Shown piece after piece: positions 1-39,982 of a DNA stretch of 39,982 nucleotides. Below the pieces are notes generated by a model. It was not told the DNA's origin. It saw only the letters and a program-made list of their open reading frames with translations, and made no database searches. The stretch is from a virus. The translations under genes were made by a program, and so were the position numbers. The first letter of the stretch is position 1, and the number at the start of each line of letters is the position of its first letter. Location: positions 1-39,982 of IMG/VR virus record IMGVR_UViG_3300049617_000017. One strand, 5' to 3'.

Positions 1-204
1 GCCCGCTTAGTGGTTCAGGTAATCCATAATGTAGGAGGCAAGATTTGGAAAGCTATGGACGAATCAAAACAGAAAGGCGAGGAACATTTTACAGGCCATC
101 AAGCGGCTATGATTGCCATTGATGAGGTTCGAAAGATTGCTGATGACTTTGACAGGGTAACGGGTGAGCAGTGCAAGCATTGCGAGACTCAGACTGAGCA
201 TTAA
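1..204 (+). CDS. 3' part of small conserved phage protein (second copy of gene at 39555)
   Basis: The reading frame is open from base 1 to the stop at 202-204 and encodes the last 67 residues of the protein complete at 39555-39935. Relative to that copy it carries Lys instead of Glu and Glu instead of Gln, one change for each base difference in the overlap. It is truncated only by the window edge and is not a separate gene. No function is recognised. The C-terminal pattern C-x2-C near GEQCKHCE could bind a metal together with nearby His residues. Confidence 0.85.
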   Translation, partial: ARLVVQVIHNVGGKIWKAMDESKQKGEEHFTGHQAAMIAIDEVRKIADDFDRVTGEQCKHCETQTEH

Positions 205-251
205 CAATTGGGCTATGGTGTAATGGTAACACAGCAGCCTTTGACGCTGTT
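1..251. repeat. Terminal direct overlap, left copy
   Basis: These bases recur at 39732-39982 with two substitutions (position 49 A versus 39780 G, and 124 G versus 39855 C). The repeat covers the end of a small gene and the first 43 bases of tRNA-Gln. The simplest reading is that the window is a circular or circularly permuted phage map whose ends overlap. A true direct terminal repeat is possible, but physical terminal repeats are normally identical between copies. Confidence 0.9.
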
Positions 252-279
252 ATTCTTCGTTCAACTCGAAGTAGCCCTT
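209..279 (+). tRNA. tRNA-Gln (anticodon TTG)
   Basis: A cloverleaf can be drawn. The acceptor is TGGGCTA (209-215) with TAGCCCT (272-278), the D-arm GGTG/ACAC, the anticodon stem GCAGC/GCTGT around loop CTTTGAC with anticodon TTG at 241-243, and the T-stem CTTCG/CGAAG around TTCAACT. The first acceptor pair is a T-T mismatch. No CCA is encoded, unlike in the other two phage tRNAs. The phage proteins are rich in Gln, often as CAA, so this tRNA plausibly supports late translation. The copy at 39940 is cut by the window end. Confidence 0.9.
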
Positions 280-312
280 CCCTTCTTTTAATTTAGACGC
301 TGAGGAGCAGTC

Positions 313-687
313 ATGAAAGAAAATGATAATGGACTTGGGATGAACACAGGAACCGCAAGCCATAGATTAAGACAGGACTTGTTGTTTTATTTTGTAAACA
401 AAGAGGGCGCAGTTTGTCATCACTGTAAGATGCCAATGGAAAGAGATAATTTTTCTATTGAACACATTAAACCGTGGAGAAAGGAAAAAAACGCTTTAGA
501 ATTGTTTTTTGATTTAAATAACATTACTTTCTCTCATTTAAAATGCAATGTTGATAATAGAAGAGTTCCTGAAAAGTTTACAGACGAAGAAATTCGACTA
601 AGAAGAAATAGGCGTAACGTAGAATATAGGGCTAGAACATACTGCCCGATTAAAAGAAAAGAGCGGTATTTAGAGAAAGGATATTAG
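313..687 (+). CDS. HNH endonuclease
   Basis: This 124-residue protein has a zinc-knuckle pair at C35 and C38 (CHHC), the catalytic-type His in SIEHIKPW (H51), an Asn in DLNN (N69/N70) and H75/C78 in SHLKCN. This is the order of a Cys-containing HNH/ββα-metal nuclease, and the length suits a small free-standing one. It lies between tRNA-Gln and the secreted moron, and on the circle between the small terminase (37124) and the large terminase (2189). HNH proteins next to terminase genes assist packaging in several cos phages, so that role is possible; a homing-type nuclease is the alternative. The start follows a GAGGAG site 7 bases upstream. The function is read from motifs only. Confidence 0.8.
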   Translation: MKENDNGLGMNTGTASHRLRQDLLFYFVNKEGAVCHHCKMPMERDNFSIEHIKPWRKEKNALELFFDLNNITFSHLKCNVDNRRVPEKFTDEEIRLRRNRRNVEYRARTYCPIKRKERYLEKGY

Positions 688-728
688 TCCTGTTAGCCCT
701 GCCAATTAACGTAAATAAGGATGAAATA

Positions 729-1115
729 ATGAATAAATTAGTACTTGGCACACTTCTTGCAACATCATTAAGCGTAAATGCTGGTCAGCCGATGTGGACA
801 TTTACCCCGTTAACTCCAACGACTGCTACCGTTTCAGCAGGTGAACAACTCGTAATCCAGTACCTCGTTACTAATCAGGCTAAAAACACCAAATCCCTTG
901 CCATGAACCCAATTCAGGGCATTCAACAGACTATTGCTAATGGTGCGTGTGCTAATCCCTTCAATTTAGGGGCTGGGCAAGCGTGTAGGCTCGATTTGTT
1001 GGTAGTTGGTAGTCAGCTATCAGGTAATATCGTTGGTGGCCCTGTAGTGTGTAATACGGCGTTCCAATGCTATCAACCATCACAAACTAATAGCTTAAAC
1101 ATTATCAAGAAGTAG
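729..1115 (+). CDS. Secreted accessory (moron) protein, Legionella-type beta domain
   Basis: This 128-residue protein has a clear Sec signal peptide: MNK, a hydrophobic stretch, then cleavage probably after VNA at residue 18. The mature part has four cysteines (74, 86, 108, 114), spaced as if for two disulfides. It contains the motifs WTFTPLTPT and GGPVVC...QCYQPSQ. From memory these match a family of secreted or envelope domains widespread in Legionella and related bacteria; I could not search to confirm this. The gene has a TAAGGAT site and is unrelated to the packaging genes around it. That marks it as a moron that may alter the infected cell's envelope or exclude other phages. Expected location is the periplasm or outside the cell. 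Confidence 0.7.
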   Translation: MNKLVLGTLLATSLSVNAGQPMWTFTPLTPTTATVSAGEQLVIQYLVTNQAKNTKSLAMNPIQGIQQTIANGACANPFNLGAGQACRLDLLVVGSQLSGNIVGGPVVCNTAFQCYQPSQTNSLNIIKK

Positions 1116-2188: not shown

Positions 2189-3730
2189 ATGGCAGCAGAG
2201 GACAAGGAGCAGCTCGCCTCGGAGTTACGCGGCAGCTTGTTAGAGTTTACAAAGTACTTTTACCCGTTGCTTACTGGTCGACAGTTTATTGTTTCTCAAC
2301 CAGTGGGAAGGGAATCGCATCACATAACTATTGCAAGGTCATTGAGCCAAGCATCACGCCTTGAGATACCCGATCATCGTTTATTGATTAACGTCAGTCC
2401 TGGTTCTGGAAAGTCTACCTTATTAGCAATGTGGGTTGCGTGGACAATGGCTAAATTCCCTGATTCACGCTTCATGTACATCTCCTATTCAAAAGTTCTA
2501 GCGGCTAAACACACTGAAACCATAAAGCGTATTATGCAATTAGCACATTATGTATACTTATTTGACGTGAGGATTAGACATGACTCAAAAGCGCGAGAAT
2601 ATTTCCAAACCACTGCTGGAGGGGCTGTGGCTGCTTTCGGAAGTGGAGGAGCTATTACGGGACAAGATGCTGGATTGCCAGGACTGGCCAGATTTACAGG
2701 CGCAGTCATTATCGATGATGCTCATAAACCGGATGAAGTCCACTCTGACACGATTAGACAATCTGTTATCGACAATTACCGAGAAACAATCCAACAAAGA
2801 GCAAGGGGAATAAATGTCCCCTACATATTCATAGGCCAGCGTTTACATGAAGACGATTTAGCAGCGTACCTAATCGCGGGAAAAGATGGTTATAACTGGC
2901 ACACAGTCATACTTAAATCAATTGACGAGGCCGGAAATGCCCTATATCCAGAGGTTAACCCGCTCGAATCACTCCTTATCAAGCAAGAACGCGACCCTTA
3001 TGTGTTCAGTTCACAATATCAACAAGAGCCAATACCCGCAGGTGGTGCGCTATTCAAACCCGAATGGTTCGTCATGCTTGAATATGAACCAGACATACTG
3101 TACAGCTTTATTACAAGCGATACAGCCGAGACCTCGAAAAGCTATAATGATGCGACTGTGTTTAGCTTTTGGGGTATTTATGAGATAGAGTCCTACGGTG
3201 TAAAAACAGGTCAGTATGGGCTACACTGGATAGATACGCTAGAGTGTCGAATTGAGCCTAAAGACCTAAAAGATACGTTCCTGGATTTTTGGCAGCAATG
3301 TATGCGTTACAAGAAGCCGCCACAGATGGTAGCTATTGAGAAGAAATCGACAGGCGGTACACTATTGAGCTTGTTGGATGAGATACGTACAATTAAACTC
3401 ATGGATATACCAAGAACAAGAGAGCAGGGTAATAAAACGAAACGATTCTTAGAAGCTCAACCATATTTAGCTGAAAGACGTGTCTCATTCCCAGCTTTCG
3501 GACGTCATGTTAAGGTATGTATAGACCATATGAGTAAAATAACTGCTAACGAAACGCATCGTTGGGATGACATTGCGGACACGGCAGCAGATGCGATAAA
3601 AATAGCTTTAATAGATAAAACAATTATATCATCACAGGTAAATGCGGTGGATTATACGAGCGTGGCTAAATCATTAATGAGTAACACTAATAAGATAAAC
3701 AGACTGAAACAAAGTGCTTATACACGATAG
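2189..3730 (+). CDS. terL: Terminase large subunit
   Basis: This 513-residue protein is the DNA-packaging motor, which pumps DNA into the prohead by ATP hydrolysis and cuts it. The N-terminal ATPase has Walker A SPGSGKST (residues 70-77) and Walker B AVIIDDAHK (172-180). The C-terminal RNase H-like nuclease shows its acidic triad in ITSDTAE (D311), VAIEKKS (E384) and HRWDDIAD (D460/D461). The length is normal for the family. The start has a TAAGGATTATTC leader. The partner small subunit is unusually distant at 37124, about 4.3 kb away on the circle, with tRNAs and accessory genes between. The portal follows directly. Confidence 0.95.
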   Translation: MAAEDKEQLASELRGSLLEFTKYFYPLLTGRQFIVSQPVGRESHHITIARSLSQASRLEIPDHRLLINVSPGSGKSTLLAMWVAWTMAKFPDSRFMYISYSKVLAAKHTETIKRIMQLAHYVYLFDVRIRHDSKAREYFQTTAGGAVAAFGSGGAITGQDAGLPGLARFTGAVIIDDAHKPDEVHSDTIRQSVIDNYRETIQQRARGINVPYIFIGQRLHEDDLAAYLIAGKDGYNWHTVILKSIDEAGNALYPEVNPLESLLIKQERDPYVFSSQYQQEPIPAGGALFKPEWFVMLEYEPDILYSFITSDTAETSKSYNDATVFSFWGIYEIESYGVKTGQYGLHWIDTLECRIEPKDLKDTFLDFWQQCMRYKKPPQMVAIEKKSTGGTLLSLLDEIRTIKLMDIPRTREQGNKTKRFLEAQPYLAERRVSFPAFGRHVKVCIDHMSKITANETHRWDDIADTAADAIKIALIDKTIISSQVNAVDYTSVAKSLMSNTNKINRLKQSAYTR

Positions 3731-21785: not shown

Positions 21786-24203
21786 ATGGCTATTATTAAC
21801 AATGCTATAAACGCCAATGTTAACGCGCCCTTACCTGGCTATGCTGGGGGAACAGGGGCTAATAACACAGGCTTGATTTTGACATATCAGGGTAACACCT
21901 CATTTCTTGGCCCATTTACTTTTGCAGGTACTTTGGTTGGAAACACAGCGGTTACATTCCCTACATCAGGTACTTTGGCTACGACCTCACAGATTCCAAC
22001 ATTATTTGTGTCATCTGCTGCGGGAACTGCTAACCAAGTATTGGTTAATGGTACGACTGGTACAGGCCAAACGGGTGCTGTGACTTTAACACTACCTCAA
22101 AACATTGGCACAACCAGTTCACCGACATTTGCAAATCCTATCTTCACAGCTCCTTTGTTAGGTACACCAACCTCTGGCGTTCTCACGAACTGTACAGAGC
22201 TACCACTGACTACTGGCGTTGTTGGAAACCTTCCTGTAACCAACCTAAACAGCGGTACTGCGGCCAGTGTGACCACATTCTGGCGTGGCGATGGTACTTG
22301 GGCGGTTCCCAATGCGGGAACGGAAACCATTACAGGTACAGCAAACCAGGTCTTGGCTAATGGTACTGTAGGTACGCCACAAACAGGCGCGGTTACTTTA
22401 ACACTGCCACAGTCAATTGCTACTACCAGCTCACCAACATTTGCAAGCCCTACATTCACAGGTAATGCAGTTTTAGGAACTCCAGCAAGCGGAACATTGA
22501 CTAACTGCACAGGATTGCCAATTGCCACAGGCGTAAGCGGACTTGGAACAGGCGTTGCAACATTTTTAGCCACACCATCAAGTGCTAATTTAGCCGCAGC
22601 GGTTACAGGCTCTACAGGTACAGGCGCACTCGTATTTAACAATGGGCCAACATTAATTGCCCCTGCGTTAGGAACTCCGGCCTCCGTTACCCTTACCAAT
22701 GCTACGGGTTTACCTTTAGCAACTGGGGTTACTGGTAACTTACCTGTGACAAACCTTAATTCTGGGACGGCGGCCAGCTCAACTACCTTTTGGCGCGGCG
22801 ATGGCACATGGGCAACACCCGCAGGTGGTGGGACGGTCAATACGGGTACGATTAATGACCTGGCTTACTACGCTGCCACAGGAACTGCTGTCTCTCCTTT
22901 GGCAACTGCTAACAGCGGCGTTCTTGTAACGAGTAACACTGGCGTTCCAAGTATTAGCACCACATTACCTAATGGCTTAGCTATGGGTACTCCGGCGTCT
23001 CTCGTTCTAACTAATGCGACTCAGTTATCATTAGCCACTGGCGTTGTCGGGAACTTGCCTGTTACTAATTTAAACTCAGGCACCGCAGCATCTTCAACAA
23101 CTTTCTGGCGCGGTGATGGTACGTGGGCAACTCCGGCTACATCTGGCTCGGGTACTGTTAACTCTGGAACTGCGAATCAGCTAGCCTGGTACGCAACAAC
23201 AGGCACCGCAGTAAGTGGATTAACTGACGCAAACAGCGCAGTATTAGTCACTAGTGGCTCAGGGGTTCCAAGCTTAAGCACTACATTGCCAAGCGGTCTT
23301 GCAATGGGGACACCTGCGTCATTGACATTAACTAACGCAACTGGATTGCCATTAGCTGGATTGACTGGATTAGGAACAGGCGTTGCTACTGCCCTCGGTG
23401 TGAACGTTGGTACTGCTGGCGCATTTGTAGTCAACGGCGGCGCATTAGGCACACCAAGTTCAGGCGTATTAACGAATGCCACTGGCTTACCATTAACAAC
23501 AGGGGTAACAGGGAATTTACCCGTAACCAACCTGAATAGTGGTACTGCGGCAAGTTCTACTACGTTCTGGCGTGGGGACGGTACATGGGCGGCTCCTACT
23601 GGCTCAGGAACAGTGAATAGCGGTACTGCAAATCAACTTGCTTATTATGCGTCTACTGGTACTGCGGTTAGTGGCCTTACAGGCGCAAACAGCGCGTTAC
23701 TTGTAACAAGTGCTACTGGCGTCCCTTCAATGACCGCATCATTAACCAACGGTCAGCTTATTATCGGCTCAACTGGTGCTACGCCTGTCGTAGCCAACCT
23801 AAGTGCTGGCCCTGGAATATCAATCGCAAACGGTGCTGGAACAATCACAATCTCTGGAACTGGTTCTGGTATTGGTTGGACAAACGTTACAGGTACTACG
23901 CAAGTTGGTGCTGCTGATTCTGGCTATGTATCTAATAATGCTGGTTTAGTGACTATTACCTTACCTGCTGTTGCTGCCTTTGGTACGGCATTTAGTATCA
24001 TCGGTGCTGGTGCTGGCGGATGGAAGATTGCACAAAACGCTGGGCAGAACGTACAAGTTGGCAATGTGTCGTCAACTGTTGGTGTTACAGGTAGTGTTGC
24101 TTCAACCAACCAGTTTGATTCTATTGACTTGTTATGTACGGTGGCTAATACCACCTGGACGACCCTAGGTGCGCCACAAGGTGCGGCTCTAACTATCGTA
24201 TAA
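21786..24203 (+). CDS. Repeat-rich tail fibre protein
   Basis: The 805-residue protein is almost free of charges and is made of repeats. The module [25 protein letters not shown] occurs four times. Between copies lie variants of [13 protein letters not shown] and of [21 protein letters not shown]. The last 65 residues are homologous to the C-terminus of the preceding protein. These modules are known from phage side-fibre shafts. The protein is likely an extended trimeric fibre. The ATG follows TTAAGGATGAATA. Confidence 0.75.
22224..23593 (+). repeat. Four diverged repeats in fibre gene
   Basis: Near-identical protein modules ([18 protein letters not shown]) are encoded at about 22224-22307, 22734-22815, 23050-23133 and 23510-23593. 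The protein sequence is almost constant while the DNA differs at many third positions (for example TGGCGTGGCGATGG against TGGCGCGGCGATGG). This suggests old duplications held by selection. Confidence 0.8.
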
Positions 24204-37123: not shown

Positions 37124-37669
37124 ATGACAGGGAAGAAGAAGGCGCAGGATGTGCCAAAGTTGACAAAGCCTAAAGCTAAAGTTGACAAAGTACCTAAACC
37201 AGTCGGACGACCCACAAAATACACGGCAGCAATGGCAGAGCGCATTTGTGAATTAGTCGCTACCTGTGAAATGGGTTATACGAGGTTATCGGAACGTTAC
37301 GAGGATTTACCCGACAGGGTTACGGTGAATATATGGCGTAGAAGATACCCTGAATTTCGTTCCATGTACGCACTGGCCAAGGCCGAACAGATAGAATATA
37401 TGACCGAAGAGATACTCGATATTGCTGATGATGCTACTAACGATTACATGGAGCATTACGACCAGAAAACAGGCTGCGTGAGTTGGCAAGTTAACGGGGA
37501 ACATATACAGCGGTCAAGGGTGAGAATAGACACGCGTAAATGGTTGGCTTCAAAGTTAGTGCCTCGAATGTATGGCGATGCTAAAGAGCCTGAAATGCAA
37601 AAGGCGATACATGAGGATGTTTTAAAGCGCAAAGACGAATTAGATGAGAGGAATAAAAAGGAGTTTTAG
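37124..37669 (+). CDS. terS: Terminase small subunit
   Basis: The product is 181 residues. It has a basic N-terminal tail, then GRPTKYTAAMAERICELVA and VNIWRRRYPEFRSMYALAKAEQ (DNA-binding helix-turn-helix). IEYMTEEILDIADDATNDY and RSRVRIDTRKWLASKLVPRMYGD follow, all typical of this terminase small-subunit family. It recognises the packaging site and partners with the large terminase at 2189. The TAG stop is followed by a further 53 open codons in the same frame with no good start. Confidence 0.9.
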   Translation: MTGKKKAQDVPKLTKPKAKVDKVPKPVGRPTKYTAAMAERICELVATCEMGYTRLSERYEDLPDRVTVNIWRRRYPEFRSMYALAKAEQIEYMTEEILDIADDATNDYMEHYDQKTGCVSWQVNGEHIQRSRVRIDTRKWLASKLVPRMYGDAKEPEMQKAIHEDVLKRKDELDERNKKEF

Positions 37670-38970: not shown

Positions 38971-39045
38971 TCTCCGTTAGCTCAGTGGTAGAGCAGTAGA
39001 CTGTTAATCTATTGGTCCGTGGTTCAAGTCCATCACGGAGAGCCA
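38971..39045 (+). tRNA. tRNA-Asn (anticodon GTT)
   Basis: A full cloverleaf: acceptor TCTCCGT paired with ACGGAGA, D-loop with AGTGGTAG, anticodon stem GTAGA/TCTAT around CTGTTAA (anticodon GTT), T-loop TTCAAGT. Discriminator G and encoded CCA at 39043-39045. Confidence 0.95.
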
Positions 39046-39051
39046 GAGCAT

Positions 39052-39126
39052 AGCGGGATATTTCAGAGGTAGAATGATGGTTTCATAAGCCATCGGTCAT
39101 TGGTTCGATTCCAATTCCCGCTACCA
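39052..39126 (+). tRNA. tRNA-Met/Ile2 (anticodon CAT)
   Basis: The acceptor AGCGGGA pairs with TCCCGCT. The anticodon stem ATGGT/GCCAT encloses TTCATAA (anticodon CAT, 39084-39086). The T-loop is TTCGATT, with CCA at 39124-39126. It is not an initiator type (acceptor A1-T72 pairs). It could be elongator Met or, if lysidine-modified, an AUA-reading Ile tRNA. Confidence 0.92.
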
Positions 39127-39554: not shown

Positions 39555-39935
39555 TTGGAACGAATAGAAATTAATGGAGAAGAATTGACCCGTATCATGG
39601 GCAATATGGATGACGAAGGGCGAAGGATATTTGAGAAGTTATTGCTTATCGTTGCGTCTAAATCACCCCTAAAATCAATTAATGACTGGCTTAGTAAGTT
39701 CGAAGATGATTGCCCCGTTGATAATTTGATAGCCCGCTTAGTGGTTCAGGTAATCCATAATGTAGGAGGCAAGATTTGGGAAGCTATGGACGAATCAAAA
39801 CAGAAAGGCGAGGAACATTTTACAGGCCATCAAGCGGCTATGATTGCCATTGATCAGGTTCGAAAGATTGCTGATGACTTTGACAGGGTAACGGGTGAGC
39901 AGTGCAAGCATTGCGAGACTCAGACTGAGCATTAA
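39555..39935 (+). CDS. Small conserved phage protein (complete copy)
   Basis: The product is 126 residues from TTG at 39555, with GAAGAAGGG about 9 bases upstream and only two bases after the previous stop. It is helical and acidic with a C-terminal GEQCKHCE. Its last 67 codons recur at position 1 with two amino-acid differences. Function unknown. Confidence 0.65.
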   Translation: MERIEINGEELTRIMGNMDDEGRRIFEKLLLIVASKSPLKSINDWLSKFEDDCPVDNLIARLVVQVIHNVGGKIWEAMDESKQKGEEHFTGHQAAMIAIDQVRKIADDFDRVTGEQCKHCETQTEH

Positions 39936-39982
39936 CAATTGGGCTATGGTGTAATGGTAACACAGCAGCCTTTGACGCTGTT
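39732..39982. repeat. Terminal direct overlap, right copy
   Basis: Matches 1-251 except at 39780 and 39855. See the left copy for interpretation. Confidence 0.9.
39940..39982 (+). tRNA. tRNA-Gln, 5' part (cut by window end)
   Basis: These 43 bases equal the first 43 bases of the tRNA-Gln at 209-279, up to the 3' part of the anticodon arm. On the circular map this is the same tRNA. Confidence 0.85.

What the first reader, a model, noticed from the sequence alone, without database searches (positions are those of the whole stretch)
729..1115. Secreted four-Cys moron resembling a Legionella-type domain
A signal peptide plus WTFTPLTPT and QCYQPSQ motifs, in the middle of packaging genes, is not a virion function. 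From memory the domain is common in Legionella secreted proteins. It may point to the host and to a lysogenic-conversion or exclusion role.
Basis: partly seen in the sequence, partly recalled or inferred. Interest (0 to 1): 0.55.

Follow-up and report, generated by a model that had tools for sequence, protein, structure and literature searches.

The report
Phage copy of Legionella envelope domain
A virus of Legionella-family bacteria carries a small exported protein from a large bacterial family that is often encoded right next to an outer-membrane barrel, so it may be a tool for controlling the infected cell's surface, for example shutting out rival viruses.

Summary
ORF 729-1115 (128 aa) has a hand-read Sec signal peptide, both motifs and exactly four cysteines. 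No Pfam or NCBIfam model reaches its cutoff. A profile finds the domain in 127 of 143 Legionellaceae genomes but in 7 of 369 sampled across the class, four of the seven being Legionellaceae. All four cysteines are invariant in 60 aligned rows. A related prophage lies in a Legionellaceae chromosome (TerL 82%, MCP 88%), so a Legionellaceae host is well supported. Lysogenic conversion is not: no integrase or CI-type repressor among 66 scanned window ORFs.

New here: in bacteria the domain heads long surface-type proteins or stands alone, and its gene often lies directly behind an outer-membrane beta-barrel gene (23 of 89 matches in 12 genomes; 2000 shuffles, at most 1). The genome with the related prophage has a barrel plus a 144-aa stand-alone domain 46% identical to the phage protein. 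The phage has no barrel; of 49 slots before TerL only two carry the domain.

Best reading: a captured barrel-partner domain, exported to engage a host barrel and mask it against superinfection, as T5 Llp does, but not as a lipoprotein. Identity is near-certain; mechanism is inferred (0.38).

The parts
729..1115 (+). ORF, 128 aa: phage-encoded four-Cys Ig-like secreted domain protein, stand-alone
718..721 (+). AGGA ribosome-binding site, 7 nt before the ATG
   Evidence: sequence
729..782 (+). signal peptide, residues 1-18 (cleavage A18|G19, hand-read, not a lipoprotein)
783..1112 (+). mature Ig-like (PapD/MSP-like) beta-sandwich, residues 19-128
948..986 (+). Cys74 (948-950) to Cys86 (984-986), probable disulfide (pairing inferred)
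   Evidence: invariant in 60 of 60 rows
1050..1070 (+). Cys108 (1050-1052) to Cys114 (1068-1070), probable disulfide (pairing inferred), in the GGPVVC...QCYQPS motif
   Evidence: invariant in 60 of 60 rows
313..687 (+). HNH endonuclease ORF beside the domain gene; replaced by a different 137-aa ORF (HNH-like by eye) in L002, no ORF of 60 aa or more there in L003
1121..1369 (+). 82-aa ORF directly downstream, conserved with the domain gene in L002 and L003
2189..3730 (+). terminase large subunit; 82% identical protein in a Legionellaceae chromosome
37124..37669 (+). terminase small subunit (other border of the accessory block on the circular map)

Best explanation
The gene is a solitary copy of a Legionellaceae envelope domain carried by a tailed phage (P22-like portal) of a Legionellaceae host. 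Shown: membership of the domain family; four invariant cysteines; purifying selection; a confident predicted Ig-like fold; and, in bacteria, a strong genetic linkage of the same domain to a small outer-membrane beta-barrel encoded directly upstream, including barrel plus stand-alone domain pairs of nearly the phage protein's size. Inferred, in order of decreasing certainty: (1) the protein is exported by Sec and its two disulfides form in the periplasm; (2) in bacteria the domain docks on the neighbouring barrel and, when fused, holds the C-terminal adhesin or propeller module at the surface; (3) the phage copy docks on the same kind of barrel of the infected cell; (4) the pay-off is masking or inactivating a surface receptor, so that related phages cannot superinfect and (recalled for such proteins, not from a call) progeny are not lost on receptor-bearing debris, as T5 Llp does to FhuA, but here by a soluble disulfide-stabilised Ig-like domain.
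For: Domain in 127 of 143 Legionellaceae genomes versus 7 of 369 in the class sample, 4 of the 7 being in the Legionellaceae set. Phage rows keep 27 of 29 columns that are at least 80% conserved in 57 bacterial rows, although the phage stem is long (0.97; clade 100/100). dN/dS 0.09-0.25. Barrel gene directly upstream on the same strand in 23 of 89 domain matches of 12 genomes, in 11 of the 12; 2000 shuffles mean 0.03, maximum 1; 21 of the 38 strongest barrel matches are in such pairs. The pair also occurs with the divergent stand-alone copies L245, L259, L260, L262, L264 and, with a weak domain match, in a genome outside the family set (L087). L265, in the genome that holds a related prophage: barrel ORF (276 aa), 12 nt, then a 144-aa stand-alone domain 46% identical to the phage protein (barrel and domain confirmed by profile). 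The upstream genes match Pfam OMP_b-brl (above cutoff in 2 of 7, below it in 5); an AF2 model shows a barrel-like run of strands (pLDDT 71.9). Precedent for barrel masking from the periplasm: T5 Llp on FhuA (PMC9586334, passages). Precedent for a fibronectin-III-like module that tethers a secreted protein to the Legionella surface: the ChiA N3 domain (PMC11162425, passages).
Against: 66 of 89 domain matches have no such barrel directly upstream, and stand-alone L257, L258, L261, L263 and L266 lack it in the stretches held, so the partnership may be optional. Of the 23 pairs, seven are near-identical copies within three genomes (three in G129, two each in G127 and G122) and two rest on barrel fragments (G058, G073). 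I chose the 12 genomes from those with domain matches, for long contigs. No physical interaction was shown and no complex could be modelled. The phage's receptor is unknown. The phage has no barrel (L002, L003, L096; window). The gene has no promoter of its own by a consensus scan, so it may be expressed with the late genes, which is late for exclusion. It is rare among close relatives, so the phage lineage can do without it.
Confidence: 0.38

Rival explanations
1. Dominant-negative surface remodeller: the phage domain occupies the host's docking sites and displaces or blocks export of the host's own domain-headed adhesins (Lcl_C, InlB-like repeat, BNR-type proteins). The benefit is not receptor masking but loss of aggregation or adhesion, or easier release of progeny.
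For: In 55 of 59 loci the domain heads an ORF of at least 200 aa; C-terminal modules are Lcl_C in 23 and InlB B-repeat in 19 of 58 proteins; Lcl is a surface protein that stimulates aggregation (PMC11162425, abstract and passages).
Against: Small stand-alone bacterial copies exist, several next to the barrel, so a lone domain is a normal form and not by itself a dominant negative. No phenotype data.
Confidence: 0.22
2. Conversion or fitness factor: the phage copy substitutes for a host barrel partner in infected or lysogenic cells (adhesion, permeability, life in amoebae).
For: A relative of the phage is integrated in a Legionellaceae chromosome; a bacterial counterpart, L265, is a stand-alone protein of similar size, 46% identical.
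Against: No integrase or CI-type repressor in 66 scanned window ORFs; that prophage lacks the gene; no own promoter by consensus scan.
Confidence: 0.15
3. Passenger gene spread by the neighbouring HNH homing endonuclease, with no important role.
For: The HNH ORF at 313-687 abuts the gene and differs in L002; L003 has none. dS between window and L002 is 0.68 for the domain gene and 0.89 for its 82-aa neighbour, against 0.11 (TerL), 0.23 (portal), 0.08 (u105) and 0.07 (coiled-coil ORF), so this block was probably exchanged.
Against: dN/dS 0.09-0.25 and 27 of 29 family-conserved columns kept: a useless passenger would decay. L003 keeps the gene without an HNH ORF.
Confidence: 0.12
4. Virion Ig-like decoration or host-adhesion protein.
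For: Ig-like domains are common in phage virions (general knowledge); weak hit to a tail-fibre PHROG, E 0.0044.
Against: Signal peptide and four invariant Cys fit export, not cytoplasmic virion assembly; homologues are cellular envelope-type proteins; no match in 50,697 phage records at E up to 10.
Confidence: 0.05

Closest known systems
Legionellaceae stand-alone four-Cys domain protein encoded after an OMP_b-brl gene (L265, L259, L264; no Pfam or NCBIfam name found, none in the papers seen)
   Same: Signal peptide by eye, same four Cys, single domain of 142-155 aa; L265 46% identical.
   Different: Bacterial copies lie in bacterial contigs, several directly after a barrel gene; the phage gene lies between TerS and TerL with no barrel.
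N-terminal domain of Legionella 'sialidase family' and Lcl_C-type secreted proteins
   Same: Same domain, 34-55% identity.
   Different: They continue into Lcl_C, InlB-repeat or BNR-type modules; the phage protein ends after the domain.
T5 Llp and T1 Cor superinfection-exclusion lipoproteins (PMC9586334, passages)
   Same: Proposed way of working: small phage-encoded envelope protein that inactivates an outer-membrane barrel receptor.
   Different: Llp and Cor are lipoproteins; this one has no Cys before residue 74 and an Ig-like fold; no exclusion or binding has been shown.
PapD-like, MSP and ASH immunoglobulin-like domains; WxLIP of Enterococcus
   Same: Fold: VIA-align Z 9.0-10.8 over 94-103 residues for the best nine rows; WxLIP Z 9.6 over 96 residues, rmsd 2.8.
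   Different: 7-12% sequence identity in those rows; fold similarity only, many rows close to tied, no function shown.

Membership tests
Legionellaceae four-Cys secreted domain family (defined by alignment A4 here) | Four invariant Cys with the GGPxxC and CYQPS-type motifs | tested here: met
   Cys in 60 of 60 rows; phage keeps 27 of 29 conserved columns
Legionellaceae four-Cys secreted domain family (defined by alignment A4 here) | Signal peptide before the W-T-F motif | tested here: met
   hand-read; best 10-residue hydropathy 1.82-2.11 for the three phage rows; of 57 bacterial rows 36 pass the same crude cut, several starts being cut short by my start choice; no SignalP
Legionellaceae four-Cys secreted domain family (defined by alignment A4 here) | Frequent but not defining companion: outer-membrane barrel gene directly upstream | tested here: not met
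   no barrel match in window, L002, L003, L096; in bacteria present for 23 of 89, so absence does not exclude membership
T5 Llp / T1 Cor exclusion lipoproteins | Lipobox and N-terminal Cys after cleavage | tested here: not met
   mature protein would start with Gly19; first Cys is residue 74
T5 Llp / T1 Cor exclusion lipoproteins | Binds an outer-membrane receptor and blocks adsorption | not testable with these tools
   needs expression and binding tests
BatD DUF11-like domain (PF13584) | Score at or above the Pfam cutoff | tested here: not met
   16.6 bits against 24.1
Lcl adhesins (NF046116, PF07603) | Lcl_C domain | tested here: not met
   no Lcl_C or NCBIfam match in the phage protein; Lcl_C is in 23 of 58 bacterial relatives
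PapD-like / MSP immunoglobulin-like fold | Shared fold with solved structures | tested here: met
   AF2 pLDDT 89.5, VIA-align Z up to 10.8; fold level only, no family assignment
Lysogenic-conversion moron | Own promoter and terminator | tested here: not met
   promoter-like sites at chance (7 against a mean of 6.1) and none on the + strand between 687 and 729; a consensus scan only
Lysogenic-conversion moron | Carried by a temperate phage | tested here: inconclusive
   no integrase or CI-type repressor among 66 scanned ORFs; but a relative is integrated in a chromosome, with no integrase that I could recognise by eye
Phage virion protein | Present in virions | not testable with these tools
   needs mass spectrometry

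The most novel reading that the evidence does not exclude
Legionellaceae have an undescribed two-part envelope module: a small outer-membrane beta-barrel and a disulfide-locked Ig-like ligand that is either free or heads diverse surface modules. Phages of these bacteria have stolen the ligand alone and use it as a soluble, non-lipoprotein decoy that locks the barrel, which would then be the receptor of these so far unisolated phages.
Probability: 0.25. Interest if true: 0.78.

Novelty: new variant of a known kind. Interest (0 to 1): 0.52.

Why it matters
Legionella phages are almost unknown. A 2022 review says that none that targets Legionella has been confirmed, while citing two 2008 claims of isolates and genetic evidence for such phages (PMC9333994, passages); the first complete Legionella prophage was reported in 2014 (PMC4256840, passages). 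This record, with its terminal repeat and its prophage relative in a Legionellaceae chromosome, is a good candidate for a complete phage of that family, and its domain names a concrete candidate for the cell-surface partner. It also exposes a large Legionellaceae envelope family without a Pfam or NCBIfam model (127 of 143 genomes, up to 25 matches in one) and a barrel partner that can be tested directly.

Tried and rejected
Pfam, NCBIfam, PADLOC and PDB sequence searches gave no family for the domain. 'Stand-alone only in phage' was my working idea; it is refuted by bacterial stand-alone copies. The first short-frame hits checked were contig ends (L078, L081), runs of N (L079, L082) or a probable frameshift (L080); L247 also ends at a contig end and L246 has N. 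CRISPR spacers against the window: none recognised in 143 genomes; the one 25-nt exact match (L236) is in AT-rich DNA without an 18-nt repeat in the stretch held. A scan of viral contigs with a bacteria-type alignment of the domain found no further virus. The barrel has no PDB relative by sequence at E up to 0.01; by fold its first Foldseek rows are a porin of the Legionella Dot/Icm machine and E. coli OmpA (model pLDDT 71.9): too general to use. The 17-bp repeat that flanks the G133 prophage is not in the window with up to 3 mismatches. No paper with the domain's motif was found (WTFTPLTPT with Legionella, 0 papers).

The scan used an alignment with two phage and two Legionella rows, which favours Legionella. 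The shuffles drew barrel positions at random and ignore that operons and duplicates are not independent. Of 134 viral loci brought in by TerL or MCP (L096-L229) the domain profile hits L096 and L151, both of one contig, that of L002; many of the 134 do not span the slot, and the fairer count is 2 of 49 slots before TerL, window included. L003 came in by the domain itself.

Full report
THE OBSERVATION. ORF 729-1115 encodes 128 aa from an ATG with an AGGA site 7 nt upstream. It has a Sec-type signal peptide by hand reading, WTFTPLTPT from residue 23, QCYQPSQ from residue 113 and exactly four Cys. The window is an IMG/VR virus record of 39,982 bases; its ends share a 251-bp direct repeat with 2 mismatches, so it is probably a complete or nearly complete phage genome. 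On the circular map the gene lies between TerS (37124-37669) and TerL (2189-3730), in a run of small accessory genes on the + strand, not within the packaging genes proper.

THE FAMILY. No Pfam or NCBIfam model reaches its cutoff, and 50,697 phage records gave no match at E up to 10. Two IMG/VR contigs carry it at 89% identity in the same place. Plasmid records gave matches in four Legionella records and, at E 8, in two Cupriavidus records. A scan of GTDB genomes with a four-row alignment (two phage, two Legionella rows) gave 59 loci, 56 of which bear a Legionella, Legionellaceae, Legionellales or Fluoribacter title; the other three are MAGs labelled Gammaproteobacteria, Rhodocyclaceae and Proteobacteria. 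A profile finds the domain in 127 of 143 genomes of the family of L. anisa, with up to 25 matches in one genome, against 7 of 369 genomes spread over the class; four of the seven are in the family set, one of the other three is strong (E 4.9e-44) and two are weak. All four Cys are invariant in 60 of 60 aligned rows.

FORM IN BACTERIA. In 55 of the 59 loci the domain begins an ORF of at least 200 aa without a stop, a few of which run off the contig; the median of all 59 is 490 aa. Of 58 full-length or cut-off relatives, 23 match Lcl_C, 19 the divergent InlB B-repeat, and a few match BNR, fn3, TIG and propeller models. Lcl_C is a domain of the Legionella surface adhesin Lcl (PMC11162425, abstract and passages). 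I first took the phage's lone domain to be unique. It is not: a second look found bacterial stand-alone copies of 142-155 aa (L245, L257-L264) and two of 144 aa that are closer to the phage protein, L265 (46% identity) and L266 (42%).

THE BARREL PARTNER. Directly upstream of several of these genes lies a protein of about 245-275 aa of the OMP_b-brl type (Pfam PF13505: above cutoff in 2 of 7, below in 5); one is annotated 'porin family protein' (L006). In 12 genomes that I chose for long contigs among those with domain matches, searched with both profiles, 23 of 89 domain matches have a barrel match directly upstream on the same strand, in 11 of the 12 genomes; 2000 random placements gave a mean of 0.03 and at most 1. 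Of the 38 strongest barrel matches, 21 are so placed. The other 66 domain matches are not; seven of the 23 are near-identical copies within three genomes, and two rest on barrel fragments. The pair also occurs with divergent stand-alone copies (L245, L259, L260, L262, L264) and, with a weak domain match, in a genome outside the family set (L087). In G133, the genome with a related prophage, the barrel is followed after 12 nt by the 144-aa domain protein (L265). An AF2 model of the barrel from 10 sequences is of middling confidence (pLDDT 71.9) and shows a run of long strands; its first Foldseek neighbours are outer-membrane barrels. The window and the phage contigs L002, L003 and L096 have no barrel match.

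FOLD. AF2 on 57 sequences gives pLDDT 89.5, with 94 or more in every ten-residue block from residue 21. It is an Ig-like beta-sandwich of the PapD, MSP and ASH kind (VIA-align Z up to 10.8); Foldseek's best E-values are 6.1e-4 in PDB and 2.5e-4 in viral models. Fold alone shows no function. The disulfide pairing 74-86 and 108-114 is inferred from sequence spacing.

EVOLUTION. The three phage copies form one clade (100/100) on a stem of 0.97 among almost only Legionellaceae sequences. They keep 27 of 29 columns conserved in at least 80% of 57 bacterial rows; dN/dS is 0.09, 0.11 and 0.25. Between the window and L002 the domain gene and the 82-aa ORF behind it have dS 0.68 and 0.89, while TerL, portal, u105 and the coiled-coil ORF have 0.11, 0.23, 0.08 and 0.07: this block was probably exchanged by recombination, next to an HNH ORF that differs between window and L002 and is missing in L003. 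Of 134 viral loci brought in by TerL or MCP, the profile hits two, both of the contig of L002 (many of these loci do not span the slot); among 49 slots upstream of TerL, window included, two carry the gene. It is a rare cargo of a large phage clade.

HOST AND LIFESTYLE. TerL has three matches at E up to 1e-20 in 143 Legionellaceae genomes, at 82, 62 and 57% identity, and two (32 and 35%) in 369 genomes of the class. The 82% match lies in a contig of 3.31 Mb, about the size of that genome, in a region that shares MCP (88%), portal (75%), scaffold, head-closure and tail-type genes with the window. A Legionellaceae host is therefore well supported. No integrase or CI-type repressor was found among 66 window ORFs scanned (7, 20 and 39; the 805-aa ORF 21786-24203 and overlapping frames were not scanned); an excisionase/regulator match and a transcriptional regulator (Cro-like by my reading) were. 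Lifestyle is open.

MECHANISM. The linkage to a barrel is the one functional clue that rests on counts. It suggests that the domain works at the outer membrane with a barrel partner. A phage that brings only the ligand would act on the barrel of its host. T5 Llp gives a precedent: a small phage lipoprotein that binds FhuA on the periplasmic side and prevents the T5 receptor-binding protein from binding (PMC9586334, passages). ChiA of L. pneumophila gives another: a fibronectin-III-like domain that binds a secreted protein to the cell surface (PMC11162425, passages). Whether the phage uses its ligand for exclusion, for stripping host adhesins or for conversion cannot be told from sequence. I put receptor masking first at 0.38.

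PRINT. Searches for Legionella phages, for the motif and for Lcl-type proteins showed no paper that names this domain in their listings or in the passages I read; supplementary files were not searched. A 2022 review says no phage that targets Legionella has been confirmed, and cites two earlier claims (PMC9333994, passages); a complete prophage was reported for L. micdadei in 2014 (PMC4256840, passages). Whether G133 is that species is not known to me: its name was not shown.

Noticed in passing
window 1-251 and 39732-39982: 251-bp direct terminal repeat with 2 mismatches: not a perfect assembly overlap, perhaps two strains or a concatemer.
   Followed up: partly
L091-L093 (G133:C1:1725000-1784700), about 13542 and 49175 of the joined stretch: Related prophage of about 36 kb between 17-bp direct repeats; its replication gene seems split between the two ends, and I saw no integrase by eye. 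A small serine-recombinase-like ORF lies just before TerL.
   Followed up: partly
L259, L260, L262, L264, L265, L245, L079, L006: Two-gene arrangement in Legionellaceae, not found named in the searches made: small outer-membrane barrel followed by a four-Cys Ig-like secreted protein.
   Followed up: yes
window 313-687; L002 4534-4947; L003 4504-4605: Different HNH-type ORFs, or none, at the same spot beside the domain gene; ARAGORN finds tRNA-Gln there in the window and in L003 but not in L002.
   Followed up: partly
window 209-281, 38971-39045, 39052-39126: tRNA-Gln, tRNA-Asn and tRNA-Met genes; listed matches of the tRNA-Asn stretch to Legionellaceae genomes are 76-91% identical; L002 has a tRNA-Tyr as well.
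   Followed up: no
L103, about 3.6 kb upstream of TerL: A different secreted-looking Gly/Ser-rich 196-aa ORF in the accessory block of a related phage: the block may be a site for exported cargo.
   Followed up: no
window small ORFs (alignment A8): One ORF matches a Lar-like restriction alleviation PHROG and one matches LPD25 of Pfam; which ORFs was not resolved.
   Followed up: no
IMG/VR: 55 TerL loci (60-100% identity) and 184 MCP matches (80 kept): A large, mostly metagenomic phage clade around this genome; two contigs bear identifiers of another style (2651869649, 2690316329), and the ORFs before TerL in L131 and L136 match those of the G133 prophage.
   Followed up: partly
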